From the NCBI GenBank assembly GCA_945873675.1, contig CAMCEP010000002.1, forward strand, positions 1 to 41,687: a DNA stretch of 41,687 nt, read 5' to 3'. Within the stretch, counting starts at the first letter, position 1; the number at the start of each line of letters is the position of its first letter. The translations under genes and the position numbers were made by a program. Source of the DNA: Asaia bogorensis. GTDB lineage: Bacteria; Pseudomonadota; Alphaproteobacteria; Acetobacterales; Acetobacteraceae. Positions 8,999 through 27,314 of the stretch are shown in pieces. A model generated the notes under the pieces. That model did no database searches. It had not been told where the DNA came from and saw only the letters and a program-made list of their open reading frames with translations.

Positions 8999-9018
8999 CC
9001 CCGTTTGGAGGATAATTC

Positions 9019-9813
9019 ATGACCGCCGAAGATATGTACCGTCAGGGGCGTCTAACCGATGCGATTACCGCACTTGGAGAACATTTGCGCCGTGATCCTG
9101 CGGATCTGCGGGCGCGTGTCTTTCTTGCAGAGTTATTATGCTTTAGCGGAGAAATCGAACGCGCGGACCGAACGCTGGATATTGCAGGTAACGATAATCC
9201 GGAGGCAGCAGTTCAGGCCGCCCGTTTACGCCAAACTCTGCGTGCAGCGATTGCCCGTAGAGAAGTTTGGACAGTAGGCCGTGTGCCGGAATTCCGCCGT
9301 GACCCTACTCCCATGATGCAGGCTTACCTACAGGCTCTTGTATTGTCCCGAGCGGGAGAAGCCTCAGAGGCGGCCAAAGTGCTCGCTCTTGCGGAAACGC
9401 GACGGCCCGCGCTTACCGTTCGCATCGATGATCAGGCGATTGGCGAATTCCGTGACGCTGATGACACCACTGCAGGTTTCCTTGAGGTACTTACGGCTGG
9501 TGGCAATTACTACTGGATCGCGTTTGATGAAGTACGAAGCCTTACCTTTGTTGCGCCGGCCACACCGCTTGATCTCATGTGGCGAACTGCAAGAATTCAG
9601 TTCGCTGACGATACCGAGGGTACAGTTTCGGTAGCCGCGATTTATCCTGGGTCTGAAGGTTCCGTAGATGATGCGCTGCGCCTTGGGCGTGCCACCGAAT
9701 GGCTTGCGATAGCGGATGAGATGATGCGCGGTCTTGGTCAACGGTGTTTCCTCGCTGATGGTGAATTATTGCCGATGACCCAAATGAAGCGCATGGAATT
9801 TACCGGGAGTTGA
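9019..9813 (+). CDS. tagJ: T6SS accessory protein TagJ/ImpE (TPR-like N-terminus)
   Basis: DAITALGEHLRRDPADLRARVFLAELLCFSGEIERADRTLD...; C-terminal LTAGGNYYWIAFDEVRSLTFVAPATPLDLMWRTA, typical of ImpE. Confidence 0.9.
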   Translation: MTAEDMYRQGRLTDAITALGEHLRRDPADLRARVFLAELLCFSGEIERADRTLDIAGNDNPEAAVQAARLRQTLRAAIARREVWTVGRVPEFRRDPTPMMQAYLQALVLSRAGEASEAAKVLALAETRRPALTVRIDDQAIGEFRDADDTTAGFLEVLTAGGNYYWIAFDEVRSLTFVAPATPLDLMWRTARIQFADDTEGTVSVAAIYPGSEGSVDDALRLGRATEWLAIADEMMRGLGQRCFLADGELLPMTQMKRMEFTGS

Positions 9814-9820
9814 TTGCTGT

Positions 9821-10288
9821 ATGGCTATCTCTCAGCTGCCAAGTTTAGTGCCTTTATTTGTCCGCCTTGTTGCGGGAGAAGACGCTCTCCCGACCACTGG
9901 CGCTGGGATCCTCGCCTTGCGTGAGAGTGTCCGGCGGGACTTGGAGGCCTTGTTGAACACAAGGCGACCGCCTCTTTCGTGGCCTGTCGCACTGAAAGAG
10001 TTAGACGGATCAATCCTCGCCTACGGGATCGGCGATATAGCCGGCCGACACTTCGAAGCAGCGGCCGAACGAAGCGCCTTCTGTACCGAAGTCGCATCAG
10101 CCATAGCTCGTTTTGACTCGAGACTGAAAGCCGTGTCCGTTCGGCTCACAGAGGAATCTCCAGGGCGTGGCTTCGGTCTGGTGATTGAGGCCGTTCTGGA
10201 TACCGACCAACTGCCACTCGCGCTTACCTTCGGTACTAAACTCGACCCTGCGCTACAGCGGATGAGTGTTGAGGAAATCTTATCATGA
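9821..10288 (+). CDS. tssE: T6SS baseplate subunit TssE (gp25-like)
   Basis: RESVRRDLEALLNTRR; ILAYGIGDIAG; FDSRLKAVSV; position before tssF. Confidence 0.88.
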   Translation: MAISQLPSLVPLFVRLVAGEDALPTTGAGILALRESVRRDLEALLNTRRPPLSWPVALKELDGSILAYGIGDIAGRHFEAAAERSAFCTEVASAIARFDSRLKAVSVRLTEESPGRGFGLVIEAVLDTDQLPLALTFGTKLDPALQRMSVEEILS

Positions 10289-12090
10289 GAGCAGATCTTC
10301 TTGCTCTCTATAACCGGGAACTGGAGGCGCTTCGTCAACTTGGTGCTGAATTTGCTGAACTACATCCAAAGGTTGCGGGCCGACTTAGGCTCACTGGCGA
10401 CTCAGTGGGTGATCCCCATGTGGAGGGGCTTCTTCAGGGCGTGGCGTTGCTCAATGCGCGCGTTCAGCTGCGCCTAGATGATGATTTTCCAGAACTAACA
10501 GCGGGATTGCTTGAAATACTCTATCCGCACTATCTTGCACCTATCCCATCATTCTTCACAGCGCAGTTCCAACCTGTCGCAGATATAGAAACGATGCAAA
10601 GGGTTCCACGTGGCACCCCGTTACGAACAGAACGCATCGGAGAAGATGAATGCGTCTTCACGACAACACAGGAGCTAGAACTCTGGCCAATCGAAATCAC
10701 CACGCTTGAACTGCGGGGGACACCCTTCGCTGCCCCACCTCCGCCCATGGGAACGAATCCTGCAGCCTGCTTGCGCGTTCGACTTCGCTGCACCGTGCCC
10801 GGACGAAGCTTTGCCTCGCTTGGTTGTGACAAGCTTCGATTGTTCCTACGGGGTCCCGCGCCGCAGGCATTGATGGAGTTGGTGCTGGCGGGTGTTGAGG
10901 CAGTTGCGTTAGCGGACGGGGCAGATGATGTTGCATGCGTCTATCTTGGCCGCGAAGCAGTTTGCTCCGGGGGCTTCGGGGAGAATGAATGCTTGCTTCC
11001 CACCGATGACCGGGTGCAGGCGGCCCACGTACTACTCACCGAGTACTTCGCTTTCCCCGAAAAATATTATTATCTTGAACTGACAGGGCTACGCTCAGCA
11101 CGCGTTTCGGGGTCATGCTTGGATGTTTTCATCTATCTTGATCGGAATGATTCGGCGCTTGAGCGCGCGTTGACCCCGGGCGCGTTCGCGCTGGGTTGTA
11201 CGCCAGCTGTGAACATCTTTCCTCAACGTGCCGAACCTATTAACGCTGACGATACACTACCAGAATATCGGATCGTTCCCAATGCACGGCGTCAGGCAAC
11301 GACTGAAATCTACGCTGTCAGTTCGGTCATTGGGTCCAATGCTGCCGGTGAGGTGACACGTTACGCGCCACTCCATTCGGTAGATCCGGATGGAAGGCGC
11401 GGTGCGCGACGCTTCTGGCATGCCACCCGCCGCCCAGGTCGGGGGCGAGATGGCGGCAGTGATGTTTTCCTTTCTATTACTGATGAGACCGCGGCCCCCA
11501 GCCCTGTGGGTGGCCAGATCATTTCGGTAGACACGCTTGCAACAAATCGGGATTTACCTAAGCAGCTGCCATTCGGCGGCGGAAGACCAACGCTTCAGCC
11601 AATGCGCGCTTTGGCTGCAGTCCGCCAAGTATTATGCTTAACTCCCCCTACGGCGCCGCTTCGGTTGAGTGATAGGCGTGCTTTCCGTTGGCGTTTACTG
11701 TCCCATTTGGCGTTGAATCATCTTTCTATAACCGGCGGGCCAGATGGCGCACGCGCGCTTCGGGAACAGCTTTTTCTCTATGATGTGCACGATGTGCCCG
11801 AAACGCGCGCATTGATCGATTCTATTGTTGCTGTGGATTCTACGCCTGGTGTTGCCCGCGTTCCATCGCGCCACTGGGGCGCGGTGTGCCGTGGCACCGA
11901 TGTGTCTATTACGCTTGATGAAACCAGTCTTGGGGGACAGAGTATATCCCTTTTTGCAGCACTGCTGGAGCGTTTTCTTGCTGCGCATACTCATTTAAAT
12001 AGTTTTATTCGGCTCACGATCCGGCTTGGGGGGCGGCGAACCCCCTACGTGGTCCTGCCGGCGCGCTCTGGTACCGGCGTATTGCTATGA
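10285..12090 (+). CDS. tssF: T6SS baseplate subunit TssF (ImpG)
   Basis: LLALYNRELEALRQLGAEFAELHPKVAGRL...DDDFPELTAGLLEILYPHYLAPIPS; ATGA overlap with tssE. Confidence 0.95.
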   Translation: MRADLLALYNRELEALRQLGAEFAELHPKVAGRLRLTGDSVGDPHVEGLLQGVALLNARVQLRLDDDFPELTAGLLEILYPHYLAPIPSFFTAQFQPVADIETMQRVPRGTPLRTERIGEDECVFTTTQELELWPIEITTLELRGTPFAAPPPPMGTNPAACLRVRLRCTVPGRSFASLGCDKLRLFLRGPAPQALMELVLAGVEAVALADGADDVACVYLGREAVCSGGFGENECLLPTDDRVQAAHVLLTEYFAFPEKYYYLELTGLRSARVSGSCLDVFIYLDRNDSALERALTPGAFALGCTPAVNIFPQRAEPINADDTLPEYRIVPNARRQATTEIYAVSSVIGSNAAGEVTRYAPLHSVDPDGRRGARRFWHATRRPGRGRDGGSDVFLSITDETAAPSPVGGQIISVDTLATNRDLPKQLPFGGGRPTLQPMRALAAVRQVLCLTPPTAPLRLSDRRAFRWRLLSHLALNHLSITGGPDGARALREQLFLYDVHDVPETRALIDSIVAVDSTPGVARVPSRHWGAVCRGTDVSITLDETSLGGQSISLFAALLERFLAAHTHLNSFIRLTIRLGGRRTPYVVLPARSGTGVLL

Positions 12091-13091
12091 TCGAAAATAT
12101 CGCAAAACAGCCATCTCGCTACGACCTTTTTCAGGCAGTCCGCCTACTGCGCCGTTCGTCCCGCGCACACCAAAATGCGGGGGATGATTTTGGTGTGCGC
12201 TTTGGGGCTGAAGTAAATACTGCGTTCGCCGCCGCACCAATCGCTGGCCTTGATCAAGGGGAACCGCAGCAGATCCCCCGATTACGCGTGACGGTCATGA
12301 GCCTGGCGGGTGCCGGCGCGGTGCTACCGCCCCCTTATACAGAAGCGCTACAACGCTCCCTGCGAGACCGGCAGCCAGCGCTGCGCGATTTTCTCGATAT
12401 CTTCAACGACCGCTCCATCGGCTTACTTTGGCGCGCTTGGGCGCGTTATCGTCCAGCCATTTCGGCAGAGGAATCGCGGGGCGATCACATTACCGAATTT
12501 CTGCTGGCGCTGACTGGGCTTCTCGATAGTGGGAGAAGTGACCGTCTGCCCATATCCGACAGAGCCGTATTATATCTGGGGGGACACTTTGCCCGCCGTG
12601 TTCGACCTGCTGCGGGTCTTCGCGCCGTCGTCGCTAGCCGGACAGGGTGGCCGGTTAAGGTAGAAGAGTTTTGCGGCCGCTGGCTGCCTTTGCCTGAGCG
12701 GGAGCGAACTCATCTCGCGCCTGCCTATGCGCCAAGACACAATTCATTGGGGGCTGGTGCCGTACTTGGCCGCGCGGTTTGGGACGTCGAGTCGGCCGTT
12801 GGCCTTCGGATAGGTCCAGTGAACTGCGCGGGCTTTCGGGATCTCATGCCTAAAAGCCCTGCCCTACGTCCGCTGGTGGCACTTGCAGGGCTATTTGCAG
12901 GGTCAGCGATCGATCTACGTCTGCAAGTGGTCTGCGCCGCTGCGGAGGCACCGAAGGTCCTATTGGGTACACACGAGCCCATCGCACCACATCTTGGTTG
13001 GAACGTCTGGATCGGTCAGCCGCAGAATGCTGTTCTAGACGACCTCTCATATCCAATTGGTGCGCTATCAGGCTGGGAAAAAACCACATGA
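12087..13091 (+). CDS. tssG: T6SS baseplate subunit TssG (ImpH)
   Basis: YDLFQAVRLLRRSSR...VRFGAEVNTAF; LPPPYTEALQRSLRDRQPALRDFLDIFNDR; ATGA overlap with tssF. Confidence 0.93.
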   Translation: MIENIAKQPSRYDLFQAVRLLRRSSRAHQNAGDDFGVRFGAEVNTAFAAAPIAGLDQGEPQQIPRLRVTVMSLAGAGAVLPPPYTEALQRSLRDRQPALRDFLDIFNDRSIGLLWRAWARYRPAISAEESRGDHITEFLLALTGLLDSGRSDRLPISDRAVLYLGGHFARRVRPAAGLRAVVASRTGWPVKVEEFCGRWLPLPERERTHLAPAYAPRHNSLGAGAVLGRAVWDVESAVGLRIGPVNCAGFRDLMPKSPALRPLVALAGLFAGSAIDLRLQVVCAAAEAPKVLLGTHEPIAPHLGWNVWIGQPQNAVLDDLSYPIGALSGWEKTT

Positions 13092-14611
13092 ATACAAGTT
13101 GGTCCGATGGCTATGTTGCCGATAGCGAATATGTTCCAGGGTTCTATAAGGAACAGGTACCCAATCACCTTGATCTAGCATGCATTTTGAGTGGTTTTGA
13201 GCCGCCGCGCCGGGCGCCCGGTTGGGTCTATTGCGACCTTGGGTGCGGTCAAGGGGCAACGCTGTTGGTACTCGCAGCAGCCAACCCTGATGGGCAATTC
13301 ATTGGTGTGGACTTCAACCCCTCACATATTGCACGGGCGCAAAGTGTCGCCCAAAGCGCTGGCCTTTCCAATATATTCTTCCTTGAGGCATCGTTTGAAG
13401 AATTAGCGGCTAATCCATCCAAGCTGCCACCGCTGGACTATGTAGCGGCTCACGGCGTGTACTCCTGGATTGGCGAACGAAGTCGCCACGCTTTTGTGGA
13501 ACTTCTACGAGCTCGGTTAAAGCCAGGCGGGGCTGCCTATATAAGCTATAACGCTCAACCCGGATGGAACAGGATATCCCCGCTGCAGCGCGTGCTACTG
13601 GATCAAGCACGGCTTTCGGGCAAGCCAAGCAGTCAGGCGGTGGTTGATGGAGTGGCTTTCTTGCGGAGCCTGGAGGCGGCTGGCGCTCCGTGTCTAGCGG
13701 TGCCTGATGTGCTTGAAAGGCTGGAAACAGAAATCAAGCGTGGTAATACCACCTACCTGGCGCATGAGTATCTCAATGCTAATTGGCAGCCGCGATACCA
13801 CGCCGACGTGGCAAAAGAAGTGGCCGAGGCAAAGCTGTCCTATGCGGCATCGGCGAACCTACTCGAAAACTTCCCGGAACTTTCCCTGCTCCCCGCCCAG
13901 ATTGCCGTGCTTGAAGCAGCACCACCTGCCGCTCGGGAGACGTTGCGTGATTATTTCATGGCGCGCAGTTTTCGACGCGACATCTTTCTTCGTGGCCCGC
14001 GGCGTCTCTTGCATGATGAGAGAGAGGCGCGGGTTAGAGAAATGCCTTTATTGCTCCTGCGCGCGCTACGCCATACCAGCCGAAAGGTTGATGTGCCGGT
14101 CGGGCAAATCGAATTGGACGTCGCACCTTATGATGCGATCTTTCAGCGCCTGACGGATGGGCCGGCCCGTATTGCGGATCTTTTGGCGGCTTCAAGTGCG
14201 GCGGGCACAAGCGCGGTGGAGGTGGCTGGTATGCTTGTGGGCTCTGGTCAGGCAGAGATTTACCGGCATACCTCATCGGAGTCTGCACGAGCCTTCAACC
14301 ATATTGCGCTCCACGAGATGCCATTGGCCTCTGGCGGGGTCACCCCAGTTGCAGCGCCAGCCATCGGCGGTGGTGTACACTTCCGCTTATTTGATCGATT
14401 GGTACTCTCGGCTCTCTTGGCCGGCGTAGCAGCCGAAGCTGAGGCCGTTTCGGCCCATGCATGGGGCGCACTTTGCAATCGGGGCGTACGTCTCACCCAG
14501 GCCGGGCGTGAAGTCACGACAGACTCAGATAATTTGGCAATTCTTCGCAGCGAGACTGCTGAGGTGCTCTCTGACGGGCTCCCCGTCTGGCGTCGCTTAG
14601 GCTTGGTATAG
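13088..14611 (+). CDS. Class I SAM-dependent methyltransferase with C-terminal regulatory-type region (putative protein methyltransferase)
   Basis: Motif I VYCDLGCGQGATLLVLAAANP, FIGVDFNPSHIARA; long C-terminal region resembling methyltransferase regulatory-domain proteins; ATGA overlap with tssG. Confidence 0.85.
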   Translation: MNTSWSDGYVADSEYVPGFYKEQVPNHLDLACILSGFEPPRRAPGWVYCDLGCGQGATLLVLAAANPDGQFIGVDFNPSHIARAQSVAQSAGLSNIFFLEASFEELAANPSKLPPLDYVAAHGVYSWIGERSRHAFVELLRARLKPGGAAYISYNAQPGWNRISPLQRVLLDQARLSGKPSSQAVVDGVAFLRSLEAAGAPCLAVPDVLERLETEIKRGNTTYLAHEYLNANWQPRYHADVAKEVAEAKLSYAASANLLENFPELSLLPAQIAVLEAAPPAARETLRDYFMARSFRRDIFLRGPRRLLHDEREARVREMPLLLLRALRHTSRKVDVPVGQIELDVAPYDAIFQRLTDGPARIADLLAASSAAGTSAVEVAGMLVGSGQAEIYRHTSSESARAFNHIALHEMPLASGGVTPVAAPAIGGGVHFRLFDRLVLSALLAGVAAEAEAVSAHAWGALCNRGVRLTQAGREVTTDSDNLAILRSETAEVLSDGLPVWRRLGLV

Positions 14612-14619
14612 CGCCGCGA

Positions 14620-16593
14620 ATGCCTGCAGCCGAGGGTACCCTATTCGGGCGTTATCGGGTCGTGGGCATTCTTGGCCGCGGCGCAACCAGTGTCGTCTAT
14701 CGAGCGGAGGATCTGGCAACGAGCAAGGCTTTTGCCATCAAGGCGCTGCGCGAGGAGTTGCTCGTGGACAATGAGCGTGAAGCGACATTGCGGCGCTTCC
14801 ATCGTGAGGCAGCAATCGGGCGGGACCTGAACCACCCTCGGATCGCTCGCTTGTACGATGTGGGTGAAAGTAACGGCTTACCCTGGCTGGCATTCGAATT
14901 TATATCTGGGGAATCGCTGGATTTGCGTATGCGCCGCACACCTATGCCGCCTGCACAGGTCGCGCTTCTTGGAATAGACCTTCTGGACGCTTTGGCTTAT
15001 GCCCATTCCCGCCGCGTGGTCCATCGTGATCTAAAGCCCGCCAATGTCATGCTTCGCGGGACGAAGACAGAACCGGTTCTGATGGACTTCGGTATCGCGA
15101 AGGTCGATGGATCAGCGTTGACATTGGCTGGTGAGGTACTGGGATCACCCGCTTATGTTGCGCCAGAAGTCTTGCGCGGCGACGGCGCCGACCATCGCTC
15201 CGATCTTTTTGCTCTGGGTGTTATGCTTTATCAAGCTGTCACTGGTTGCCGGCCTTTCAATGGTACAGTTGCTGAAGTGCTACATCGTATTTGTCATATG
15301 GAACCCCTTCCTCCATCGGCGCATTTGCCACAAGCAGCTTGCTTCGATGCGGTTCTGACCCGCGCAATGATCAAGCAACCGGACGCGCGCTTTCCTAATG
15401 CGCAAGCATTTTCTGAAGCGCTACGTTCGCTCAGCAGTGAAATAGAAGCGAATGAATTGCCCGGTCGGTATTTTGCCACTGCGCGGCCCGAAATGCCCGA
15501 ACCGTCGTTACGTGCTGCCGATCTGCGGGCCGCCTTATCCGAGAATCTTGGAGGAGAGATTACGGCTACTAGTCTTGCGCGGTTGAAGGCGGTGATCGCC
15601 CGTATCCCCCAAGCGGAGCGCCCGGCTGCCGCGACCGTGGTAATGGCCGAGGGCATCCATCCTTTGGCCATTTGGTTGAGTGAGACAGCGCCCGATCCAC
15701 AACGCATAGGCGACAAGGGGGGGGATTGGCTAATCGGCGCCGAAGCGATGGAAGCGATGCAGCTCCTTTTACAGGGCTTACCTGAATGGCCAGAGGCGAA
15801 TTCGGCCATGATCAGTCTGGCGCAGGATCTTGCGGCACGTGCCCTACTGTTTGGCGAGGCACTCGGCAGGCGTTTGGCCGAGACGGATGATGCCCCAGAT
15901 CTTCAGGAAATTGCTTTCGCATTCCTGAATCTTGATGCCCTATGCTTCGGCCTTGATACCCTTGGTGCAGAGCGCGAGCGCTGGCTGGTGGAGGCTTCAT
16001 CAACCTTGGCTGTGGCTGGCGTTTTACGCAAAGCAGCTTCCTTGATGCACCGTTATGTTGACACCCGCGATCCGCTTATTCGCTTCGACGTTTTGAACCT
16101 TCTGTTGCGGTGCGAAGATCTGATCGGCCTTGCGGGACGTCTTTTGGAGCCTCCGTTGGGTAAGGGGTACTCGTCTGTCGCTCTCGCCCAAGTTGGCGAA
16201 AACGCTCTGAAATCATTAATTAACGCCATCACAGCTTTAGTCGATGTCATAGGGGAAGAATTGATAGCGGTATCCGCCGATCCGGCTGGTATTGGCGAAA
16301 CCCTGGGGCGGCTTCGGCAATTGCAGCTTATCCATCGCTTTGCAACCCGTCTGGATGCAGTGACCTTCCATCAGGTGCTAGCGGGTCTATCAATGCAAGT
16401 GCATGACCTGTTCAGTCGGCTTGGAGCAATACTGCTTTCAATGCCCGATGATTCCGACTCAAGGCACCGAATTGGTGTTCTGCAGGAGATGGCGGCTGAA
16501 CTGGGTTGGCACGACTTAGCGCGCCGATTGCTGCGCGAATTGAGCCGCCGCGTTTTGGCGCTACCGAATGCCATTATGGGGGGGGCCGCATGA
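14620..16593 (+). CDS. ppkA: Hanks-type Ser/Thr protein kinase (PpkA/ImpN-like)
   Basis: GRGATSVVYRAED, VVHRDLKPANVML, LMDFGIAKVD, GSPAYVAPEVL; C-terminal half helical, without an obvious TM segment. Confidence 0.93.
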   Translation: MPAAEGTLFGRYRVVGILGRGATSVVYRAEDLATSKAFAIKALREELLVDNEREATLRRFHREAAIGRDLNHPRIARLYDVGESNGLPWLAFEFISGESLDLRMRRTPMPPAQVALLGIDLLDALAYAHSRRVVHRDLKPANVMLRGTKTEPVLMDFGIAKVDGSALTLAGEVLGSPAYVAPEVLRGDGADHRSDLFALGVMLYQAVTGCRPFNGTVAEVLHRICHMEPLPPSAHLPQAACFDAVLTRAMIKQPDARFPNAQAFSEALRSLSSEIEANELPGRYFATARPEMPEPSLRAADLRAALSENLGGEITATSLARLKAVIARIPQAERPAAATVVMAEGIHPLAIWLSETAPDPQRIGDKGGDWLIGAEAMEAMQLLLQGLPEWPEANSAMISLAQDLAARALLFGEALGRRLAETDDAPDLQEIAFAFLNLDALCFGLDTLGAERERWLVEASSTLAVAGVLRKAASLMHRYVDTRDPLIRFDVLNLLLRCEDLIGLAGRLLEPPLGKGYSSVALAQVGENALKSLINAITALVDVIGEELIAVSADPAGIGETLGRLRQLQLIHRFATRLDAVTFHQVLAGLSMQVHDLFSRLGAILLSMPDDSDSRHRIGVLQEMAAELGWHDLARRLLRELSRRVLALPNAIMGGAA

Positions 16594-16973
16594 CCTTTGC
16601 TGCGCGAATGGGGGATATGATCATGCAAGACGCCCCCCATTGTCATGCCCCCATCCACCCTGCAGGCCCGGTTCCAACGGCGGTACCTCATCCGGCGCTT
16701 CCCTTGGTTATCGTCAAGGGGATGCCGACTGTACTGATTGGCAATTTGCCGGCGGCACGGGCCACGGATATCAGCGGACCCTGTATGTTGCCATCCTGTC
16801 TGCCAGCTGGGCCTGGTATGATTGCAAAGGGTTCGAGCACGGTACTGATCGGCAACCTACCAGCTGCGCGTACTAATGACCTTACATCACACACCAGCTG
16901 TGTCGCTCCGATTCCTGCACCAGTGGGTAAGGTAATGCCCCCGGGGTGCACCACTGTAATGATCGGTGGCTAA
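16590..16973 (+). CDS. PAAR-domain T6SS spike-tip protein
   Basis: MTFAARMGDMIMQDAPHCHAPIHPAGP... with repeated STVLIGNLPAARTNDLTSH and a terminal CTTVMIGG; ATGA overlap with the kinase gene. Confidence 0.88.
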   Translation: MTFAARMGDMIMQDAPHCHAPIHPAGPVPTAVPHPALPLVIVKGMPTVLIGNLPAARATDISGPCMLPSCLPAGPGMIAKGSSTVLIGNLPAARTNDLTSHTSCVAPIPAPVGKVMPPGCTTVMIGG

Positions 16974-16981
16974 GCAGGAAG

Positions 16982-18058
16982 ATGCGAGACCGTCACTTTA
17001 AGGAACTTCTGCCAATATGCCCCGCCTGTCGTCAGTTGGGGCGTGGTGACCGGCGTTTGCGTGTTGCACTGGTTGAGCGCCAGAGCCAAGAGCGCCTGCT
17101 GGATGGCCTATTGCAATGTTCTGATGCAACTTGTGCGACGGAGTATCCGGTTGTGGCGGGTTTGCCTGTACTGGTGCCGGGCCTGCGCGCCTTCCTTCGT
17201 GACACGTCGCTTTATCTCATGTTGCGTGACGATCTAGAGCCCGCAATTCTCTCGCTCCTGGCCGAGGCATCGGGGCCTGGATCAGCGCTTGAAAGTATTT
17301 TTCAGCAGATGTCGACTTACGGCGCAGACCATTGGGGTGAGATCGAAGCTGGGTATACGCCTGGATCTGCGCAACGCTGCCTTGAACACGGGCTGTCCTT
17401 CGTGCGTGGCCGCTTGCCCGATGGCCCCGTGCTTGACGCGGGTTGTGCGGCGGGCGGGACAAGCGTGGCGCTAGCCGAGGCGCTTGGCCGAACGGTGCTT
17501 GGTATTGATGTGAATCCTATGCTGCTTGGTATCGGCCGCCGGATATTGGAACGCGGCGAAGTGCGATATCCTTTGCGTCGCATCGGATTACTCTATGATG
17601 TGCGCACCCGAACATATCGCCCTGCGGGTGCCGATTTGGTTGATTTCTGGATTTGTAACCTGGCCGGTCTTCCCTTCCAGGACGCAACATTCGCACTTAT
17701 TTCGGCATTAAACATCCTCGATTGTCTCCCCAACCCCGCTGATGGTGCTTCAGAAATGCGGCGCGTACTCACGTCTGGTGGCGTTGGCATCGTTGCCTGC
17801 CCCTTTGATTGGAGCGGCGCCGTGACACCACCGGAACATTGGGTGGGCGGTCATTCCGGGCGGCCGGCGGATCGTGGGGATCCTGCGGCATTGCTCCAGC
17901 CTTTGCTCTCTGGCCAGTTGGGCGGTCATGCAGCACCGCGATCCATCACGGTCTTGGGGCACGAGGCCCGCTATCCCTGGCGGGTGCGGCTTCATGAGCG
18001 GGCGACTGTCGAGTACGCGACATGTGTTCTCAGCTTTCGTGTGGGAGAGAGCGCATGA
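16982..18058 (+). CDS. SAM-dependent methyltransferase with N-terminal Trm112-like Cys-rich module
   Basis: CPACR...LLQCSDATCATEYPVVAGLPVLVPG (Trm112-like), then VLDAGCAAGGTSVALAEALGRTVLGIDVNPMLLGIGRR (motif I). Confidence 0.82.
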   Translation: MRDRHFKELLPICPACRQLGRGDRRLRVALVERQSQERLLDGLLQCSDATCATEYPVVAGLPVLVPGLRAFLRDTSLYLMLRDDLEPAILSLLAEASGPGSALESIFQQMSTYGADHWGEIEAGYTPGSAQRCLEHGLSFVRGRLPDGPVLDAGCAAGGTSVALAEALGRTVLGIDVNPMLLGIGRRILERGEVRYPLRRIGLLYDVRTRTYRPAGADLVDFWICNLAGLPFQDATFALISALNILDCLPNPADGASEMRRVLTSGGVGIVACPFDWSGAVTPPEHWVGGHSGRPADRGDPAALLQPLLSGQLGGHAAPRSITVLGHEARYPWRVRLHERATVEYATCVLSFRVGESA

Positions 18059-18849
18059 AGGCGGTGTTTACTGTGCTGCGTGGTCCGCGTAGGGGCGAAA
18101 TTCGCGAGATTGATGGTACTTCCCTCACGCTTGGGCGCGGTGAAGAAGCGGATTGGCAGGTGGCGACGGACCGGGTCCTCTCTCGCTTACATTGCCAAAT
18201 TACTTTTTCCATGGGTGGCTATGACCTCACGGATCTGAGTACCAACGGAGTTATACTCAACAGTGCAGCAAAGCCGCTTGGGCAAGGCGTGACGGCGCGG
18301 CTTGCATCTGGGGATCGGATCGACCTGGGTCCGGTTGAACTTATAGTTCGGCTGGTTCTGCCCTCGCATGACGACGACCCTTTCCTTGCAGCAATAATTG
18401 GGAACCAGCCTAAATCTGAAGTGCAAGCTGCGCCCTCTGGTTGGCACCCCCCGCCAAACGCAACGTCAGCGCCTTGGAGTGTTGCTTCGTCGCTGCCACC
18501 ACTTACCGGCGAATCGTTCCAAATATCCCACCCATCATCAATCGGTCCGGTAATTACGGCATCGGCGGCGATCCCCGATGATTGGCTTGATGAACGTATG
18601 ACCGGCAATAATTTACCTGAGGCGAGCCTTTCGGCAGCCTACGATGCTTTGGTCGCAGAAGTCTGGGCGCTGACGCAGGCCTGCGCGAATCTTGATTCTG
18701 AACTTGCTACTGATGCGATCGCAGCTGCACCAAGCGCCAAGGCCGCTGGAGCAATTCTAAGTGCCGAGGATGGTAGCCATCGGCGCCGCCTGTTTCACAC
18801 CCTTACCCGCATGTTCACCCAGGCTATGGCCAGGCGAGGCATGCCATGA
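18055..18849 (+). CDS. FHA-domain protein (TagH/ImpI-like)
   Basis: LTLGRGEEADWQVATDRVLSRLHCQITFSMGGYDLTDLSTNGVILN; ATGA overlap with methyltransferase 2. Confidence 0.9.
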   Translation: MKAVFTVLRGPRRGEIREIDGTSLTLGRGEEADWQVATDRVLSRLHCQITFSMGGYDLTDLSTNGVILNSAAKPLGQGVTARLASGDRIDLGPVELIVRLVLPSHDDDPFLAAIIGNQPKSEVQAAPSGWHPPPNATSAPWSVASSLPPLTGESFQISHPSSIGPVITASAAIPDDWLDERMTGNNLPEASLSAAYDALVAEVWALTQACANLDSELATDAIAAAPSAKAAGAILSAEDGSHRRRLFHTLTRMFTQAMARRGMP

Positions 18850-18865: not shown

Positions 18866-20197
18866 ATGTCTCTTGCAACTCCTATCGTGTGGTCGGAGGG
18901 GCTCTTCCTCCGCCAACATCATTTTCAACAGCAAGAGCGTTACCTTCGCCACTTGGTGCGAGAACGCACTGCTGCGCTTGGTGCACATGGCTGGGGAATC
19001 TCGGCGCTTGAGGTGGATCGTAGCCTATTGGCCCTCGGGCAATTTGGACTGACGCGCTGCCGTGCGATTTTGGAAGATGGCACACCTGTTTCGATACCAG
19101 ATGTGGATTCAAACCCAGCCCCGACACTTCTACCAGAAGCTGCGCGGGATCGAATAATTTATCTTGCGCTACCTGTTGCCCAAGCCGGCAGTATTGAAGT
19201 GACAACGGGTACCGGTACCATGGCTCGATATGTGCGCGATACCATCGAGGTTTCAGACGCAGTCGAAGGGCCGCCATCGACGGCAGATATCCCTATCGGG
19301 CGCCTGCAGTTCCGCTTCCTGGTGGAAGGGAATGATTTATCGGGCTTTGTGTGCCTGGGCGTCGCACGTGTGAAGGAAGTACGCCCGGGTGGTGGAGTAT
19401 TATTGGATGAAACCTTTATGCCTGCAGCAACGGACTGTAGCGCCCACCCAACACTTGCTGGAATAGTGACTGATACATTGGGGTTAGTAACGCATCGTGC
19501 GGATGCACTGGCCCGACGTCTTGCCGGCAACGATGCTGTTGGAGGGGCTGAGGTAACTGATCTTTTGCTGCTTGCCGCGTTAAATCGTGCGGCGGCCTTG
19601 TTCACTCACCTTTCCGAATTCGTTGGGCTCCACCCAGAACGGCTTTTCGCCGAGTTGGTGCAATTGGCCGGAGAGATCGCGAGCTTCACCACCCCCACAC
19701 GCCGCAACGCGGTTTTTCCAGCCTATCGCCATACCAACCTAGAGGCCAGCTTCCGTCCAGTGATTGATGATTTGCGGCGATCGCTCACTTCTGTGCTGGA
19801 TCGCCGGGCAGTCTCCATACCTTTGACGGAAAGGAAATACGGCATCTTAACCGGTCACATAGCTGATCTCTCCCTGGTTGGTGAGGCACAATTCGTATTG
19901 GTGGCGCGATCCTCCTTCTCAGCGCCCACGATTGCACGTGTACTTCCCGCCCAGGTTAAAGTGGGACCCACAGAAATCATTCGCGATCTGGTGAATTCAT
20001 CCCTTCCTGGTATCGGCCTCCGAGCCCTGCCGTCGGCGCCTCGCGTGCTGCCTTTTTATGGTAACGCAACCTATTTCGAATTGGCGGCCGATAGTCCGCT
20101 TTGGGCACGCATGCGAATTTCTGGTGCTGTGGCGCTACACGTAGCGGGGGAGTTCACCGACCTCGAAGTTGAACTCTGGGCGATAAGGAGCCCCTAA
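18866..20197 (+). CDS. tssK: T6SS baseplate subunit TssK (ImpJ)
   Basis: MSLATPIVWSEGLFLRQHHFQQQERYLRHLVRERT; start placed downstream of the ORF-track start because of the canonical N-terminus. Confidence 0.95.
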   Translation: MSLATPIVWSEGLFLRQHHFQQQERYLRHLVRERTAALGAHGWGISALEVDRSLLALGQFGLTRCRAILEDGTPVSIPDVDSNPAPTLLPEAARDRIIYLALPVAQAGSIEVTTGTGTMARYVRDTIEVSDAVEGPPSTADIPIGRLQFRFLVEGNDLSGFVCLGVARVKEVRPGGGVLLDETFMPAATDCSAHPTLAGIVTDTLGLVTHRADALARRLAGNDAVGGAEVTDLLLLAALNRAAALFTHLSEFVGLHPERLFAELVQLAGEIASFTTPTRRNAVFPAYRHTNLEASFRPVIDDLRRSLTSVLDRRAVSIPLTERKYGILTGHIADLSLVGEAQFVLVARSSFSAPTIARVLPAQVKVGPTEIIRDLVNSSLPGIGLRALPSAPRVLPFYGNATYFELAADSPLWARMRISGAVALHVAGEFTDLEVELWAIRSP

Positions 20198-20201: not shown

Positions 20202-21596
20202 ATGTCACAACCCTCGCCTTTCACCGAAGAGCCAGATGAACTCGACAAGACTACCCGAATTCTGCCTGGTGCGAAAATTAACGCAGCCTCGGCGCGAGTG
20301 CCTGAGCATGAGCCTGAGAGACGGATTGTGCCATCGCGCGCTGCCGCTATGCAGCAATCGCAATCGCTGGGATCCCCAGAAGGTGACGTTTGGGATCTTA
20401 GTGCGCTAAACCAACTATGCGCTTTGGCTGCCCCACTTTTGACGATGGCAGCTCGATTGGCTGCGGGCCATGCGCACCCGGATCTCGAGGAATTGCGCGG
20501 TCGCGCGGTTACGTACGTACGCGAGATGGAGAGCCGTGCGCTGCAGGAAAATGTGTCAACGGAACGATTGCGTGTGTTGCGTTATCTGATCTGCGCCACA
20601 TTGGATGATTTAGTGCTCAGCACGGCGGAGGGTCCACAGAGTGATTGGGCCTCCCGCGGTTTGGTCAGTACCATCGAGCAGGAAACCTGGGGCGGTGAAC
20701 GTTTCTTCGTGCTCCTGGATAACGCCATGACCGATCCGGCGCGGTCGATTGATGTTCTCGAACTTTGCCATATTTGCATTTCGATCGGCTTTGCGGGGCG
20801 CTACCGCGTGGCACCGCGTGGCTCAACCGAACTCGCGGCGTTGCGTGATAAGCTTTTCCGCATCATTCGGGCACAGCGTGGTGACCCGGAATTAGATCTT
20901 TCGCCACCGCTTCGGCCGCTTGGTCTCCCTTTCATGCCACCCAAACCTGCGCGTTGGCTCTGGGCAGTACCTATTGCCGCGCTACTGCTGCTGGTGACTG
21001 GCTGGATCGTGGCTGATCGCTCACTTTCCGCCACGGCGGCCGCACTCGTAACACGCTTGGAGGCGATATTGCCGCCTGGTCAACCATTGATCATCCTCCC
21101 AACTGCGACACCAGCTTCCCCGGCGCCCTCGCTCACTCCAGAACAGCGCTTTCTGCAACTTGAAAGAGTACGCGAAAGGCTGGCGGACCTAGTCGCAGCG
21201 CGGCGTTTGGAGATTACTGAGACCGAGGCACATATTATTCTCCGTTCCCCCGACTTGATGCTACCGTCTGGCCGGACATCGCCCCCGCAGGACTCTCTAG
21301 TTTTGATCGAGAGGATCGGCGCTGCATTGGCGGTTGAGCCTGGCCAAATTCTGATTGTAGGGCATAGCGACAATGTGCCGGTCATCGCAGCGAGGTCATT
21401 TGACAATGTCGAATTATCTCGCCGGCGGGCACAATTAGTCGCAGAGCGCATGGCCCCCACTATCGGCGGAGAGCAGCGCATGTCGGTGGAGGGGCGTGGT
21501 GATACACAGGCCATAGCCTCTAACGATACGCCTACCGGACGGCAGCGTAACCGTCGCGTTGAAGTCCTACTATCGCGCGAAGGTCGCATACCTTGA
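20202..21596 (+). CDS. tssL: T6SS membrane protein TssL with C-terminal OmpA/MotB peptidoglycan-binding domain (ImpK)
   Basis: LRYLICATLDDLVLSTAEGPQSDWASRGLVSTIEQETWGGERFF, TM WLWAVPIAALLLLVTGWIV, OmpA-like ILIVGHSDNVPV...NVELSRRRAQLVAERM. Confidence 0.95.
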   Translation: MSQPSPFTEEPDELDKTTRILPGAKINAASARVPEHEPERRIVPSRAAAMQQSQSLGSPEGDVWDLSALNQLCALAAPLLTMAARLAAGHAHPDLEELRGRAVTYVREMESRALQENVSTERLRVLRYLICATLDDLVLSTAEGPQSDWASRGLVSTIEQETWGGERFFVLLDNAMTDPARSIDVLELCHICISIGFAGRYRVAPRGSTELAALRDKLFRIIRAQRGDPELDLSPPLRPLGLPFMPPKPARWLWAVPIAALLLLVTGWIVADRSLSATAAALVTRLEAILPPGQPLIILPTATPASPAPSLTPEQRFLQLERVRERLADLVAARRLEITETEAHIILRSPDLMLPSGRTSPPQDSLVLIERIGAALAVEPGQILIVGHSDNVPVIAARSFDNVELSRRRAQLVAERMAPTIGGEQRMSVEGRGDTQAIASNDTPTGRQRNRRVEVLLSREGRIP

Positions 21597-21598
21597 GA

Positions 21599-23074
21599 AT
21601 GATGAAGATGGATCGAAAAACGACCCATTCAGCAGGTTGGGTAGCAGCCAATGAGTCGCGCATTGCGATACGCCGTGTCGCTGCTGGCACATTGGGGTTG
21701 GTAAAGGATAGGCTATCTCAGGCTGAGGGTCTTCTGCTTGCTCGTGGGGGTAACCAGAAGCCTTGGTATATCGCTATTGGCGCAAACAATGTGGGTACTA
21801 CCACGTGGTTGCGCGTAGCCGCGGGATCTGGGCGGTGGACCGGGGATACGAGTTTATCGGGCGCTCCTTCAGCGCCGGTTGAATTGGTGTGCTGTGAGAG
21901 TGCATTGGTCGCCGATATCTCTGGAACTTTGATTTCACAGGATCTTGATGAAAAAGTAGAGAGTGTTGTCTGGCGAGGAGTTTTGCGCCAACTGCGCCGC
22001 GCGGCAATTGGCCGAATGGCTGGTATCTTGCTTTTTGTCGAAGCATCCGGCTCAGGCTTCCGAGAGATCGCGGATGCTGCGCTCGCCGCACGCCTCAAGG
22101 AGATCCGCGCCGCCTTTGGTCCTTTGCCGATCTACTTGATTGTGACAAAGCTCGACCGATTGCCTGGATATGGCACCTTTTTAGCGGGACTTGAGGGCGA
22201 TATCCGAGAGCGCCCCTATGGGGCGTTGTTGTCGCCGGGGGCAGGCCAACCAGCGCTAGCGGGCCAACTTCTAGATGAATTGTTGGCCCGGCTCACGGCG
22301 CAGACCATCTTCCGCTTGCAGGCCACTGGTATTGGCGAACAAGGCGCAGATGCTCTTGGTTTCCCTACGGCTTTCGCGAAAATGCGCGATCCGCTCATCG
22401 GGCTGGTAAATCGACTGCTGCCTCGCGAACCTGAAAGGCTCAGAGGAGTTTTCTTCAGCGCCAGCCCAACCGCCGGTACCGGGCGCGTCCGCCTGGACTT
22501 TGCACGCGATGTCCTGTCGGGTGTTGTGGCGCAGGAGGCTGGGTTGGCCAAATCAGCTAAGTATAGGCTTGCGATACGGGTACTGACATCCGTAGCCATC
22601 GCAATAGCGTTTTTGGTGGGCGGTCTTTCAGTTTTGGCAATTGACCATCGGGATCAGGGTGCGGCTCTGGCAAGAATGGAAGCTGCTATTGGGCGCGCCT
22701 CGGGTCATCTGGCCACAACCAGTGTTACTGTCATCTCCGACCGGGCCCCAAATTCGATCCTTCCTGTTCTAGATAGTCTCGCAGAGGCGACCGATGCAGT
22801 GGGTGCCGCGCCGATGGTGCTGACCGACCATACCGCTCTGGCCGCTCGCGCTGCCCGTGTTGTCTACCGCTCGGCTCTGGCAAAACTTCTGGCGCCAAGG
22901 CTTGGGCTTGCTGTCGAAGAAGCGATGCGTCAGCACGGGATAGACCCTGGTATCCTCGATGACGCCACCCTGAAGGGCTGGTTGGAGAGTGGTGGCTGGC
23001 CCATCCCGTCAGAGGATGCCGCTACGCTCCGGCACCATTTGAATGTCCTGCTTCGGCACGGGGGAGAAAGATGA
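21599..23074 (+). CDS. TssM/IcmF-like paralog: GTPase-domain-like region with degenerate P-loop plus one TM segment
   Basis: WYIAIGANNVGTTTWLR (Walker A Lys missing), LIVTKLDRLPGYGTFLAGL (TKxD retained), TM AIRVLTSVAIAIAFLVGGLSVLAI; lacks the paired N-terminal TMs of TssM. Confidence 0.75.
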   Translation: MMKMDRKTTHSAGWVAANESRIAIRRVAAGTLGLVKDRLSQAEGLLLARGGNQKPWYIAIGANNVGTTTWLRVAAGSGRWTGDTSLSGAPSAPVELVCCESALVADISGTLISQDLDEKVESVVWRGVLRQLRRAAIGRMAGILLFVEASGSGFREIADAALAARLKEIRAAFGPLPIYLIVTKLDRLPGYGTFLAGLEGDIRERPYGALLSPGAGQPALAGQLLDELLARLTAQTIFRLQATGIGEQGADALGFPTAFAKMRDPLIGLVNRLLPREPERLRGVFFSASPTAGTGRVRLDFARDVLSGVVAQEAGLAKSAKYRLAIRVLTSVAIAIAFLVGGLSVLAIDHRDQGAALARMEAAIGRASGHLATTSVTVISDRAPNSILPVLDSLAEATDAVGAAPMVLTDHTALAARAARVVYRSALAKLLAPRLGLAVEEAMRQHGIDPGILDDATLKGWLESGGWPIPSEDAATLRHHLNVLLRHGGER

Positions 23075-26000
23075 GCGGGTCAACCCCCATCGGCGAAATT
23101 ATGCGCCGACCTCCGGTGATTGCGCTTCTGGTCGCGTCCGTACTGGGACTTTTACTTTGGTTTGGGTTGCCGCTGATTAACATAGGGGGGCAACAGCCTC
23201 TAGCCGGTACATCTCTGCGCCTTGGGGCCCTATTGTTTGTGGCGCTTTGTTGGGGAGGTGCGAATCTTCTTTTTGCGCGCAACGGCCAACGCGATGGAAT
23301 GTGGCGGGCCCAGGCAGCAACGCGGCGCGCCGCGCGCACAGCCGAACGTAATGCAAAAATTGAAAGCCGCACTGCCACGGACACGACAGCGCAGCGTCTG
23401 CTAGCGACCGATCGGCTGCTGCGCGGACATGTTTCTGAACTTCCGATATTTCTTTTGCTTGGTCCGACTGGCGCGGGCAAGACAGCCCTGCTTGCCCAAT
23501 CTGGACTTCCCTTTCCGCTACAGGCTCGGGCTGGGGTGCTGCCAGAAAGCGGGGTAGCCACAGAGCAAGCCGCGGCTTGGGTCGCCGAGAAGGCGATCTT
23601 CCTTGATACTCCGGGATATTTTGCGGATTTAGCGCCTCTATCTCCCGGTAATCGCGCGAAATGGTACGGTTTTCTTGGGCTACTGCGCCGGCGCCGCCCA
23701 TCGCAGGCGATCAATGGGATCCTACTCACGGTCAGCCTTGAGACAATCGCCAGAGCCTCTGAAACTGAGCGCACCACCTTGGCGCAGAATTTGCGCTATA
23801 GAATAACTGATGTTGAGGCTCGCTTTGGCTTCCGCCCGCCCTGCCACTTAATTTTTACGCACACCGATACAATCAGCGGGTTCAGTGAATTTTTCGCCGG
23901 AGTGTCGGCCGTTACTCGAGCTGGACAACTTGGTGCGGAGATTCCACCCATTCCAGACCAGCCCTTCCGGAGGGAAGTGTTGAGGAACTATTTTCACAGC
24001 ATCCTTGTGCGTCTCACGCCGGCAGTACCGACGCTTCTTCAACGGGAACTGGATGCGGAGCGGCGCTTTCGTATTCTTGAATTCCCAGCACAATTTGCAG
24101 CTCAATCCGAAGCTGTCGTGAACTTCCTGTCTGCCTTGATGGAGCCATCCCGCCAAGTGGCACAAGTTTATTTGCGTCGTTTCACGTTCACCAGCGTTCC
24201 GGGTCCAACAGAAGAATTAGATTCACTCGCGCCAATACTTGATGATGCATTTGGCTTGGCGCCGCTTCCGCCGACAGAAAGCAAGCCGGTCCAACGGCGC
24301 GCTAGTTTATTCATACATCGGCTGCTGGACGAAATACTGCCGGCTGAGGCTGGCCTCGCAGGTTTCGACCCTCGCCAGCGTCGTCGTGCCCAGCGAAGTC
24401 GATTGGCGCTTGCCTCTGGCTCCGGCGCTCTGGCCCTTACGCTTGGCGTGGCATTCACCCTGACCTGGACTGAAGGCCGTGATCATCTCAAGACCGCTGA
24501 GGCAGCGGCGACGGAAGTAGAATTGGGTCTGACGCGTATAACTGCCGGCGCCTCGCACGAGGCGCGCCTGGAGGTGCTTGATGCGCTCCGAACGGCCGCA
24601 GAGAGGCATAAGGAGAGTTTTACTGGTATCGGTGGGGAAGCTCTGGACGAAACTGACAAGTTGGCGGAAGCTGCCTATCGAAGGGGTCTTTCTGCGCTTC
24701 TATACCCTGAACTCACAGCCTACCTCCACGCAAAGCTTTCCTCGGCGATTGGGCAAGGAGCTGAGCCAGCTGAGGTTTTCGCCGCGTTGCGCGCCTATCG
24801 CGTCATTCTTGGGCAAGGGCCCTTCGATGCGGCTTTGCTCCGCGCGGCATTGCAAGATCTACCCAGACCCTACTCCGCCGTTTGGCGTGCTTCTCATGCT
24901 AGGCATGTTGATGCGGTTTTGAACGCCGGTGCGCCGCTGCCCGGCGCTACGGTGGACACTTCATTAATTGAGCTCGGGTTGGCGCGACTGCGCGGTTGGT
25001 CATCGGTTGAATTGGGCTATGCGATCTTGCAGAGCCATCCTTCATTAAAGGCTATGCCAGAATGGCGTGTAGCCGATCATGCAGGACCTGCGGGCGCACG
25101 TGTACTTGCAAGAAGATCTAATCGTGGCCTGCTGCAGGGCGTGCCCGGTATGTATACAGCGGCTGCCTTTCATGATGTGGTGAAGGCGCTTATTCCGATT
25201 GCTGCGCGCGAAGCGATGGACGTCGCTTGGGTGCTTGGTGAAAGCTCCCTTGGGGTTACTGCTGCAGCAAGGCGTGACCGAAGCGAGGCGAATATTCTTG
25301 CACTCTACCTTGATGATTATGCCCGCGCTTGGGAGGGGCTGCTGGCGGATATTGGGATTTTTCCCTTTAGCACCGTGGAGCAGACGCTGGATGTGCTCAA
25401 CGCGCTCTCGACGACGCAATCACCCCTCCGCCTTTTCCTCCTCGCGGCGGCAAGTGAAACGACGCTCACAACGCCCGCTGTGGCCGATTCGGCTGCTGCA
25501 GGGCGCGCCCCGGCAGCTGCTGGGCTTGATGGTGTATCATTGGCTTCAGGACACCTGACCGGGCCTTTGGCGCGCGGCTTGGTAGCTGCTATTCCATCGC
25601 CGCAACAGCCTGGGCAACCGATAAACGACCGCTTCTCTGCGCTACACGAATTTGTGCGTGGTGTTAACGGTCAACCAGCCGAACTTGAAGCTTTGACCGC
25701 AGGTTTCCGGGAATTGTATGAACAACTACTCCAAGCTTCATTTGCGCCAGATAGCGGACGGGCGATGCTTGCGGCACTGCAGGGTACGGGCGGCAACCAA
25801 GCCAGGCTTCGCCTGCAAGGTATTCTACAGCGTAGTCCGGCATCCATCCGCCGGACAGTGGAACCGGCGGTTCAGCGCGCACAGAACGTCGCGCGTATTA
25901 CCGCTTCGGACCAGGCGAATGCTGCATGGCATTCACGACTATTGCCGGTTTGCCGCGCGCTCCTTGATCGTTTTCCGTTCAACCCAACAGCAGGGGATGA

Positions 26001-26604
26001 AGCGGCTTTAGGCGATGTAACATCGTTATTTGGCCCTACCGGCCAACTGAATGCCTTCTTTGAAGAGCACTTGAAGCCACATATCAATGCGACCACTACG
26101 CCCTGGACGCTGCGGCGCACCGGCGGGGCATCATTTGCGGTATCGCCAGCAATGCTTGCCTTTCTCGAACGGGCGGAGTTGCTGCGCACAGCCCTTTTTT
26201 CCTTAGGGGCCGAAAGCCCACGAGGGAGATTTGAGATTGAGCCGGTTGAACTAGATGTTCGTGCGCTGGAAATGCTGCTGGTGATGAACGGTAGCATCCT
26301 ATCATATCGTCATGGCCCAACCACCCCGCGCCAATTTGATTGGCCTTCCGCTACCCCAGCTGTAAGGCTTACTTTTGGTCCGCCGATACCAGGTGAGATA
26401 TCTTCTGCGGAATTTCGGGGCCCCTGGGCATTACACCGTCTACTCGCGCGCGCAACGCGACAGACCTCAACAAAGCCTGAAGAGACTCTCTTTCGGATCG
26501 ATTTGGGGGCGCGCTGGACGGTATTGTCTTTGAGAGCGAGCAGTCCAGCAAACCCTTTCTCGGTTGGCGTGTTTGATGGGCTGCGCTGCCCTGAGGCGTT
26601 GTGA
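23071..26604 (+). CDS. tssM: T6SS membrane complex protein TssM (IcmF/ImpL)
   Basis: Two N-terminal TMs, LLGPTGAGKTALLAQSGLPFPL, IFLDTPGYF, TM near 24.4 kb, C-terminal IcmF-like region; ATGA overlap upstream. Confidence 0.94.
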   Translation: MSGSTPIGEIMRRPPVIALLVASVLGLLLWFGLPLINIGGQQPLAGTSLRLGALLFVALCWGGANLLFARNGQRDGMWRAQAATRRAARTAERNAKIESRTATDTTAQRLLATDRLLRGHVSELPIFLLLGPTGAGKTALLAQSGLPFPLQARAGVLPESGVATEQAAAWVAEKAIFLDTPGYFADLAPLSPGNRAKWYGFLGLLRRRRPSQAINGILLTVSLETIARASETERTTLAQNLRYRITDVEARFGFRPPCHLIFTHTDTISGFSEFFAGVSAVTRAGQLGAEIPPIPDQPFRREVLRNYFHSILVRLTPAVPTLLQRELDAERRFRILEFPAQFAAQSEAVVNFLSALMEPSRQVAQVYLRRFTFTSVPGPTEELDSLAPILDDAFGLAPLPPTESKPVQRRASLFIHRLLDEILPAEAGLAGFDPRQRRRAQRSRLALASGSGALALTLGVAFTLTWTEGRDHLKTAEAAATEVELGLTRITAGASHEARLEVLDALRTAAERHKESFTGIGGEALDETDKLAEAAYRRGLSALLYPELTAYLHAKLSSAIGQGAEPAEVFAALRAYRVILGQGPFDAALLRAALQDLPRPYSAVWRASHARHVDAVLNAGAPLPGATVDTSLIELGLARLRGWSSVELGYAILQSHPSLKAMPEWRVADHAGPAGARVLARRSNRGLLQGVPGMYTAAAFHDVVKALIPIAAREAMDVAWVLGESSLGVTAAARRDRSEANILALYLDDYARAWEGLLADIGIFPFSTVEQTLDVLNALSTTQSPLRLFLLAAASETTLTTPAVADSAAAGRAPAAAGLDGVSLASGHLTGPLARGLVAAIPSPQQPGQPINDRFSALHEFVRGVNGQPAELEALTAGFRELYEQLLQASFAPDSGRAMLAALQGTGGNQARLRLQGILQRSPASIRRTVEPAVQRAQNVARITASDQANAAWHSRLLPVCRALLDRFPFNPTAGDEAALGDVTSLFGPTGQLNAFFEEHLKPHINATTTPWTLRRTGGASFAVSPAMLAFLERAELLRTALFSLGAESPRGRFEIEPVELDVRALEMLLVMNGSILSYRHGPTTPRQFDWPSATPAVRLTFGPPIPGEISSAEFRGPWALHRLLARATRQTSTKPEETLFRIDLGARWTVLSLRASSPANPFSVGVFDGLRCPEAL

Positions 26605-27314
26605 TGCTTACTGGTCGCTTCGGAGGACGGCTGCTTAGCTGGGCGCATTCTTCAAGGGAACTCAGTTTCACGACAGGATACGCGACCCAGGCCGGACTTA
26701 GGCGGCGGATTCAGGAGGACGCCGTTGCTATTGTTCCGAATTGCGGGCTTTGGGCTGTGGTGGACGGCATGGGGGGCCATGGCGGCGGGGCAATGGCCAG
26801 CCGTCTTGTTTCGAGGGCATTGCTTGCGGTGAAGCCTGAAGGTGGAATTGCGGGCATGACCCGGGCAGTCTTGCGTTGCTTGCGCCAGTCGCATGAAGAA
26901 TTGAATAATCTAGATACTGAAACTGGTAGAAAGCCTGGCGCCGCCTTCATTGTGCTTCTCACGGCGGCTGACCATTACACTGCTATTTGGGCAGGTGACG
27001 CACGGTTATACCAACAGCGCCGTGGCGTATTCTCCCAAGTAACACAGGACCATCTTGCCCAGGATGGCCATAGCCTATTGCAGGCAATTGGCGGTGGCGG
27101 TCCCTTGGAACCCGAAATTGTACATGGCCTGCTGCGCTCCGGGGATCGTTTCCTTTTGTGTAGCGATGGCATAACGAAGACCCTGTCCGGTGCTGTAATC
27201 GCCAAGCTGCTTGCGGCTGGCGAAGCGCAGGGCTCTGCCGACGCCTTGATAGCAGCCGTCCTTGCTGCCGGCGCGCCGGACGACGCTACCGGCATTGTGG
27301 TGGCTGTGAATTGA
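26604..27314 (+). CDS. pppA: PP2C-family Ser/Thr phosphatase (PppA-like)
   Basis: RRRIQEDAVAIV, LWAVVDGMGGHGGG, AIWAGDARLYQQRRG, FLLCSDGITKTL. Confidence 0.93.
   Translation: MLTGRFGGRLLSWAHSSRELSFTTGYATQAGLRRRIQEDAVAIVPNCGLWAVVDGMGGHGGGAMASRLVSRALLAVKPEGGIAGMTRAVLRCLRQSHEELNNLDTETGRKPGAAFIVLLTAADHYTAIWAGDARLYQQRRGVFSQVTQDHLAQDGHSLLQAIGGGGPLEPEIVHGLLRSGDRFLLCSDGITKTLSGAVIAKLLAAGEAQGSADALIAAVLAAGAPDDATGIVVAVN

What the first reader, a model, noticed from the sequence alone, without database searches (positions are those of the whole stretch)
21599..26604. Two TssM-like GTPase domains with complementary motif losses
Seen: the upstream paralog has GANNVGTTT in place of Walker A GxxxxGK[T/S] but keeps VTKLD (G4-like TKxD). 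The downstream full TssM has intact GPTGAGKT but FTHTD at the TKxD position. The genes overlap (ATGA at 23071-23074). Inference: the single TssM GTPase may have split into an asymmetric pair, with one subunit binding the phosphates and the other stabilising the base or acting as a pseudo-GTPase regulator, giving a heteromeric membrane complex. The apparent lack of TssJ in the window makes an altered membrane complex more plausible.
Basis: partly seen in the sequence, partly recalled or inferred. Interest (0 to 1): 0.68.

Follow-up and report, generated by a model that had tools for sequence, protein, structure and literature searches.

The report
Two-TssM type VI secretion locus
A bacterial toxin-injection machine here carries, next to its normal membrane motor protein TssM, a separate half-length copy; the extra copy recurs in distant relatives, but the "complementary broken motifs" that drew attention are found only in this genome.

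Summary
A short TssM-like protein (21599-23074, GANNVGTTT, TKLD) lies between TssL and a full TssM (23071-26604, GPTGAGKT, FTHTD) in a large T6SS locus. The proposed mechanism, one GTPase split by complementary motif loss, is not supported. I found the same gene pair, in the same place, with the ATGA overlap and two T6SS-embedded methyltransferases, in two distant alphaproteobacteria: MAG contig VGEH01000018.1 and Aureimonas sp. AU20 plasmid pAU20a. In both, short and full proteins keep P-loop and [T/S]KxD, so the losses are private to this lineage. AU20's locus also encodes TssJ, so the pair does not go with TssJ absence. The pair is rare: no other case seen among 167 same-family genomes with a TssM-type match, with limits noted. 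Best reading: a dedicated TssM N-terminal-half subunit (GTPase-like domain, one TM, no TssJ-binding C-terminus) that co-assembles with TssL and TssM; here it has become a pseudo-GTPase. Citrobacter rodentium, where truncated and full TssM1 are both needed, is the closest functional precedent. A separately encoded short TssM conserved with the locus seems undescribed in the papers I could search. No interaction or activity was tested.

The parts
21599..23074 (+). short TssM-like gene (TssM N-terminal half: GTPase-like cytosolic domain, one TM, about 140-residue periplasmic stub; G1 lysine lost); possible TTG start at 21593
21779..21805 (+). degenerate P-loop GANNVGTTT (residues 61-69, GGC...ACG)
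22145..22156 (+). G4-like TKLD (residues 183-186) of the short protein
22580..22636 (+). single predicted transmembrane helix (residues 328-346) of the short protein, equivalent to TM3 of TssM
23071..26604 (+). full TssM (GPTGAGKT, DTPG, FTHTD; three TM; complete periplasmic and C-terminal domains)
23071..23074 (+). ATGA stop/start overlap; a 4-base overlap of short and full gene is seen in both orthologous loci too
20202..21596 (+). TssL/DotU with C-terminal OmpA peptidoglycan-binding domain
18866..20197 (+). TssK baseplate subunit
26601..27314 (+). PP2C-type phosphatase
18022..18849 (+). FHA-domain protein (TagH-like)
16946..18058 (+). methyltransferase MT2, next to a PAAR gene; conserved in all three two-TssM loci
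13088..14611 (+). methyltransferase MT1 with PF10119 regulatory domain, next to tssG; conserved in all three two-TssM loci
14620..16593 (+). Ser/Thr protein kinase (PpkA-like by position; identified from its sequence, aligned to the G598 and AU20 kinase genes)

Best explanation
The short gene encodes a dedicated accessory membrane-complex subunit derived from the N-terminal half of TssM. It has the GTPase-like cytosolic domain, one membrane helix and a periplasmic stub, and lacks the TssJ-binding C-terminal domains. Probably co-translated with TssM through the ATGA overlap, it most likely joins TssL and full TssM in a heteromeric inner-membrane assembly, adding cytosolic TssM-type domains on the baseplate side without adding periplasmic arches. 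In this genome the short subunit has lost the P-loop lysine and probably acts as a structural pseudo-GTPase, while full TssM keeps the P-loop. Shown by sequence: domain content, position, overlap, conservation of the pair in three loci, motif states. Inferred: co-translation, co-assembly, stoichiometry, loss of nucleotide binding.
For: Same set of genes, with the same order FHA - (TssJ in AU20) - TssK - TssL - short - TssM and a 4-base overlap, in three alphaproteobacterial loci from different families. Short proteins 1 and 2 form a clade (99/94), and one clade for all three is not rejected (p-AU 0.42). The ORF is intact, coding-like and modelled as a P-loop GTPase-like fold plus TM helix (pLDDT 75.5; best Foldseek hits are GTPases, top E 1.1e-3). 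In C. rodentium truncated TssM1[1-807] and full TssM1 are both required, at a set ratio (PMC4256274).
Against: Only three loci found. The AU20 short protein is only about 20-30% identical to the other two depending on alignment, so its orthology rests mainly on position. It also keeps the TM1-TM2 hairpin that the other two lack. The C. rodentium short form is longer (807 aa) and comes from the same gene. Foldseek hits are weak (none at E <= 0.001).
Confidence: 0.55

Rival explanations
1. Complementary split GTPase: the full protein binds the phosphates, the short protein supplies the base-binding G4, and together they form one composite site.
For: Motif states in this window alone.
Against: Both domains are motif-complete in both orthologous pairs; THxD occurs without a short partner; G1 and G4 of a P-loop GTPase lie in one pocket, so sharing them between two subunits would be unprecedented to my knowledge.
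Confidence: 0.05
2. Vestigial duplicate: in this lineage the short gene is losing its function, and P-loop loss and fast divergence are early decay.
For: Long branch of short1 (3.59 against 1.39 for short2) and unique G1 loss; MAG from one genome only.
Against: Frame intact over 490 codons, ATGA coupling, TM helix, G3 Asp/Gly and TKLD retained; the full TssM also has a long branch (3.01 against 0.69), so speed is not specific to the short gene.
Confidence: 0.2
3. Regulatory decoy: the short protein competes with TssM for TssL or the baseplate and limits or times assembly, possibly under control of the locus kinase/phosphatase or methyltransferases.
For: It lacks the C-terminal half; the locus holds kinase, PP2C, FHA and two methyltransferases; changing the ratio of TssM1 forms abolishes function in C. 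rodentium (PMC4256274).
Against: No direct evidence; kinase, FHA and phosphatase are also present in a single-TssM locus (Tistrella).
Confidence: 0.17

Closest known systems
TssM/IcmF, T6SS membrane subunit (TIGR03348)
   Same: Short protein matches TssM positions 108-553; same G1/G3/G4 region, TM3 and start of the periplasmic domain.
   Different: No TM1-TM2 in this protein, no C-terminal TssJ-binding part, separate gene in addition to a full TssM; G1 lysine lost.
Citrobacter rodentium CTS1 TssM1[1-807] / TssM1-FL pair (PMC4256274)
   Same: Truncated and full TssM coexist; both and their ratio are needed for T6SS function.
   Different: There one gene with transcriptional slippage gives identical N-termini; here two diverged genes, and the short one is about 490-594 aa.
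Aureimonas sp. AU20 WP_061978018.1, 'IcmF/TssM N-terminal domain-containing protein'
   Same: Same position between DotU/TssL and TssM, same overlap, same locus type.
   Different: Motifs intact, TM1-TM2 kept, locus has TssJ.
TssM-N/OmpA protein of genome G989 (L135:8911-11409, 832 aa)
   Same: A second, C-terminally cut TssM paralog in a T6SS locus.
   Different: Lies downstream of the full TssM, carries OmpA, accompanies a TssL without OmpA; groups with its own full TssM in the tree, so separate origin is likely.
Acinetobacter baumannii non-canonical T6SS membrane complex (PMC10564176)
   Same: T6SS membrane complex with extra subunits and without TssJ.
   Different: Extra parts are Acinetobacter-specific envelope proteins such as TsmK, not described as a TssM paralog (abstract read only).

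Membership tests
TssM (TIGR03348, full subunit) - protein 23071-26604 | full-length match over cut-off | tested here: met
   732 bits against cut-off 388, 2-1168 of 1168
TssM (TIGR03348, full subunit) - protein 23071-26604 | Walker A GxxxxGK[TS] | tested here: met
   GPTGAGKT
TssM (TIGR03348) - short protein | match over the equivalog cut-off | tested here: not met
   116 bits against 388, only 108-553 of 1168
TssM (TIGR03348) - short protein | C-terminal domain (PF06744/IcmF_C) | tested here: not met
   absent
IcmF-related_N (PF14331) - short protein | domain match over gathering score | tested here: met
   70.8 bits against 25
P-loop GTPase, catalytically competent - short protein | G1 lysine | tested here: not met
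   GANNVGTTT; 115 of 115 other N-domains keep it
P-loop GTPase, catalytically competent - short protein | GTPase fold | tested here: inconclusive
   AlphaFold pLDDT 75.5; GTPase hits at prob 1.00 but E about 1e-3 and low TM-score
Two-TssM T6SS locus type | short TssM-like gene between TssL and TssM, 4-base overlap, MT1 and MT2 present | tested here: met
   window, L079/L067, L132; sister-sheath loci of Tistrella and Azospirillum have neither short gene nor MT1/MT2 annotated
Complementary split GTPase | complementary motif loss conserved in orthologs | tested here: not met
Heteromeric TssL-TssM-short complex | physical interaction | not testable with these tools
   single-chain prediction only

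The most novel reading that the evidence does not exclude
A rare T6SS subtype whose membrane complex is obligately hetero-TssM: a separately encoded N-half TssM subunit shares the cytosolic ring with full TssM, and in this lineage it has become a pseudo-GTPase, leaving an active/inactive asymmetric ring.
Probability: 0.4. Interest if true: 0.6.

Novelty: new variant of a known kind. Interest (0 to 1): 0.42.

Why it matters
If the short protein is a real subunit, it offers a natural separation of TssM's cytosolic GTPase-like part from its periplasmic arch. That would let one test what the TssM nucleotide site does, which differs between systems: it is required in Agrobacterium but reported dispensable in Edwardsiella tarda (PMC3953482, PMC4632598). 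The pseudo-GTPase state here and the intact state in Aureimonas AU20 are natural contrasts. It also suggests that something like the two-form TssM requirement of C. rodentium may have been fixed as two genes elsewhere.

Tried and rejected
Looked for short paralogs next to TssM in 29 best same-family loci, in 398 same-family genomes (167 with a match), 399 of the phylum and 385 of the class: only G598 added. Short-frame candidates checked: G124 runs off a contig end; G1007 is a TssM in two overlapping frames; G865, G739 and G1049 are single TssM genes about 710-730 aa long followed by a TagF-like gene; G377 and G570 are further short single frames, not pursued. Two genome-contig scans: the first with the short protein found nothing; the second gave G598's contig again and no further pair. 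Mis-binning of the window contig: tetranucleotide profile of the T6SS part is broadly like other contigs of the genome (r 0.37-0.66), GC slightly lower; not decisive. Sequencing error as cause of motif loss: each needs two or more base changes. Solved-structure sequence search: no TssM N-domain match. Thiodictyon plasmid with MT2-PAAR has no TssM annotated in the stretch read.

Full report
OBSERVATION. The short protein (21599-23074, or from TTG 21593) is the N-terminal half of a TssM: PF14331 at 1.5e-19 and TIGR03348 over positions 108-553. The long one is a full TssM, 732 bits over 2-1168. Motifs: short GANNVGTTT / DISG / VTKLD; full GPTGAGKT / DTPG / FTHTD. They overlap by ATGA. The changed residues are encoded by ACT and CAC, each at least two substitutions away from a Lys codon, so a single base error does not explain them.

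HOW UNUSUAL. I aligned 115 other TssM N-domains from the loci fetched (a sample biased towards relatives). All keep GxxxxGK[TS]. The G4 lysine is missing in three: THAD in a Blastocatellia locus (L109) and TQCD in two same-family loci (L030, L031). L109 shows one TssM-type protein in a 22.8 kb locus, so a THxD TssM does not imply a short partner.

LOCUS. The window holds a T6SS cluster: clpV, hcp, vgrG, tssB, two tssC, ImpE/TagJ-like, tssE, tssF, tssG, methyltransferase MT1 with PF10119, kinase, PAAR, methyltransferase MT2, FHA, tssK, tssL with OmpA, short, tssM, PP2C (some names rest on sequence comparison with the AU20 annotation). No TssJ was found in the genome, which is 77% complete.

ORTHOLOGOUS PAIRS. 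A Pfam search of 385 class genomes gave one further genome, G598, with a 600-aa open frame just before a full TssM. Its contig (L067/L068; also found as VGEH01000018.1, L079) carries the same genes in the same order at about 30-80% identity. Its short protein has GPRAAGKT and TKLD, its full TssM GPPGSGKT and TKCD. Following MT1 into the plasmid collection gave a third: Aureimonas sp. AU20 pAU20a, with MT1 and kinase next to tssG, and PAAR, MT2, FHA, TssJ, TssK, DotU, 'IcmF/TssM N-terminal domain-containing protein', TssM in a row. There the short protein has GPPGMGKS and TKID, the full one GPEASGKT and SKLD, and TssJ matches PF12790. All three share a four-base overlap of short and full gene. 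The AU20 short protein still has two N-terminal hydrophobic segments (read); the other two have only the TM3 equivalent.

PHYLOGENY. Short 1 and 2 group at 99/94. The AU20 short protein is not placed with support; one clade of all three is not rejected (p-AU 0.42), which does not prove it. Both members of the window pair have longer branches than their G598 counterparts (short 3.59 vs 1.39; full 3.01 vs 0.69). Against Azospirillum TssM, the window's full protein is 35% identical in the first 480 residues where G598's is 45%, while the remaining parts are 35% and 37%. So the extra divergence of the full TssM lies in its N-terminal part.

DISTRIBUTION. None of the other same-genus genomes in the relatives sample showed a short version, and the same-genus TssMs found are only about 31-32% identical to the window's, so they do not seem to have this T6SS. 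Among 398 same-family genomes, 167 have a match and no further pair was seen, but the match list was cut. None was seen in 399 phylum genomes apart from a different kind in G989, a TssM-N/OmpA protein. Plasmid T6SSs with a sheath about 71-74% identical (Tistrella, Azospirillum) have one TssM and no MT1/MT2 annotated. The association of short TssM with MT1+MT2 is three of three against none of two, too few for statistics.

FOLD. AlphaFold on 29 aligned sequences gave pLDDT 75.5 and pTM 0.62; Foldseek best matches are GTPases (EngA, FeoB, Era, Arf) at about 1e-3 to 1e-2. This supports a GTPase-like fold but not activity.

MECHANISM. Best supported: a dedicated N-half TssM subunit in a heteromeric inner-membrane complex, catalytically degenerate in this lineage (0.55). 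The precedent is C. rodentium, where TssM1[1-807] and TssM1-FL are both required and their ratio matters (PMC4256274). The complementary-site model is rejected as the principle of the pair because the orthologous pairs are motif-complete in both members. Decay in this lineage (0.2) and a regulatory decoy (0.17) remain open.

LITERATURE. Full-text searches for a TssM paralog or two TssM found no description of a separately encoded short TssM; the library lacks most subscription papers. NCBI annotation already names the AU20 gene by its domain.

Noticed in passing
window 13088-14611 and 16946-18058: Two methyltransferases, one with a PF10119 regulatory domain, are embedded in the T6SS locus and conserved in all three two-TssM loci (beside tssG and beside PAAR); they may modify a T6SS component.
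   Followed up: partly
L135:3178-3891 and 8911-11409 (genome G989): A T6SS with a full TssM plus an 832-aa TssM-N/OmpA protein, with a 237-aa TssL without OmpA: the peptidoglycan-binding part seems to sit on a TssM paralog instead of on TssL.
   Followed up: partly
L137, L138, L139: TssM genes of only about 710-730 aa end just before a tagF-like gene; no C-terminal TssM piece was detected near them.
   Followed up: partly
L136:4266-8458 (genome G1007): tssM lies in two overlapping frames (654 and 884 aa): frameshift, slippage or assembly error.
   Followed up: no
window 6132-8998: Tandem tssC genes; also annotated in Aureimonas, Tistrella and Azospirillum loci.
   Followed up: partly
window 4974-5573: DUF6931 protein after vgrG, conserved in G598 and AU20 loci; possible VgrG accessory.
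   Followed up: no
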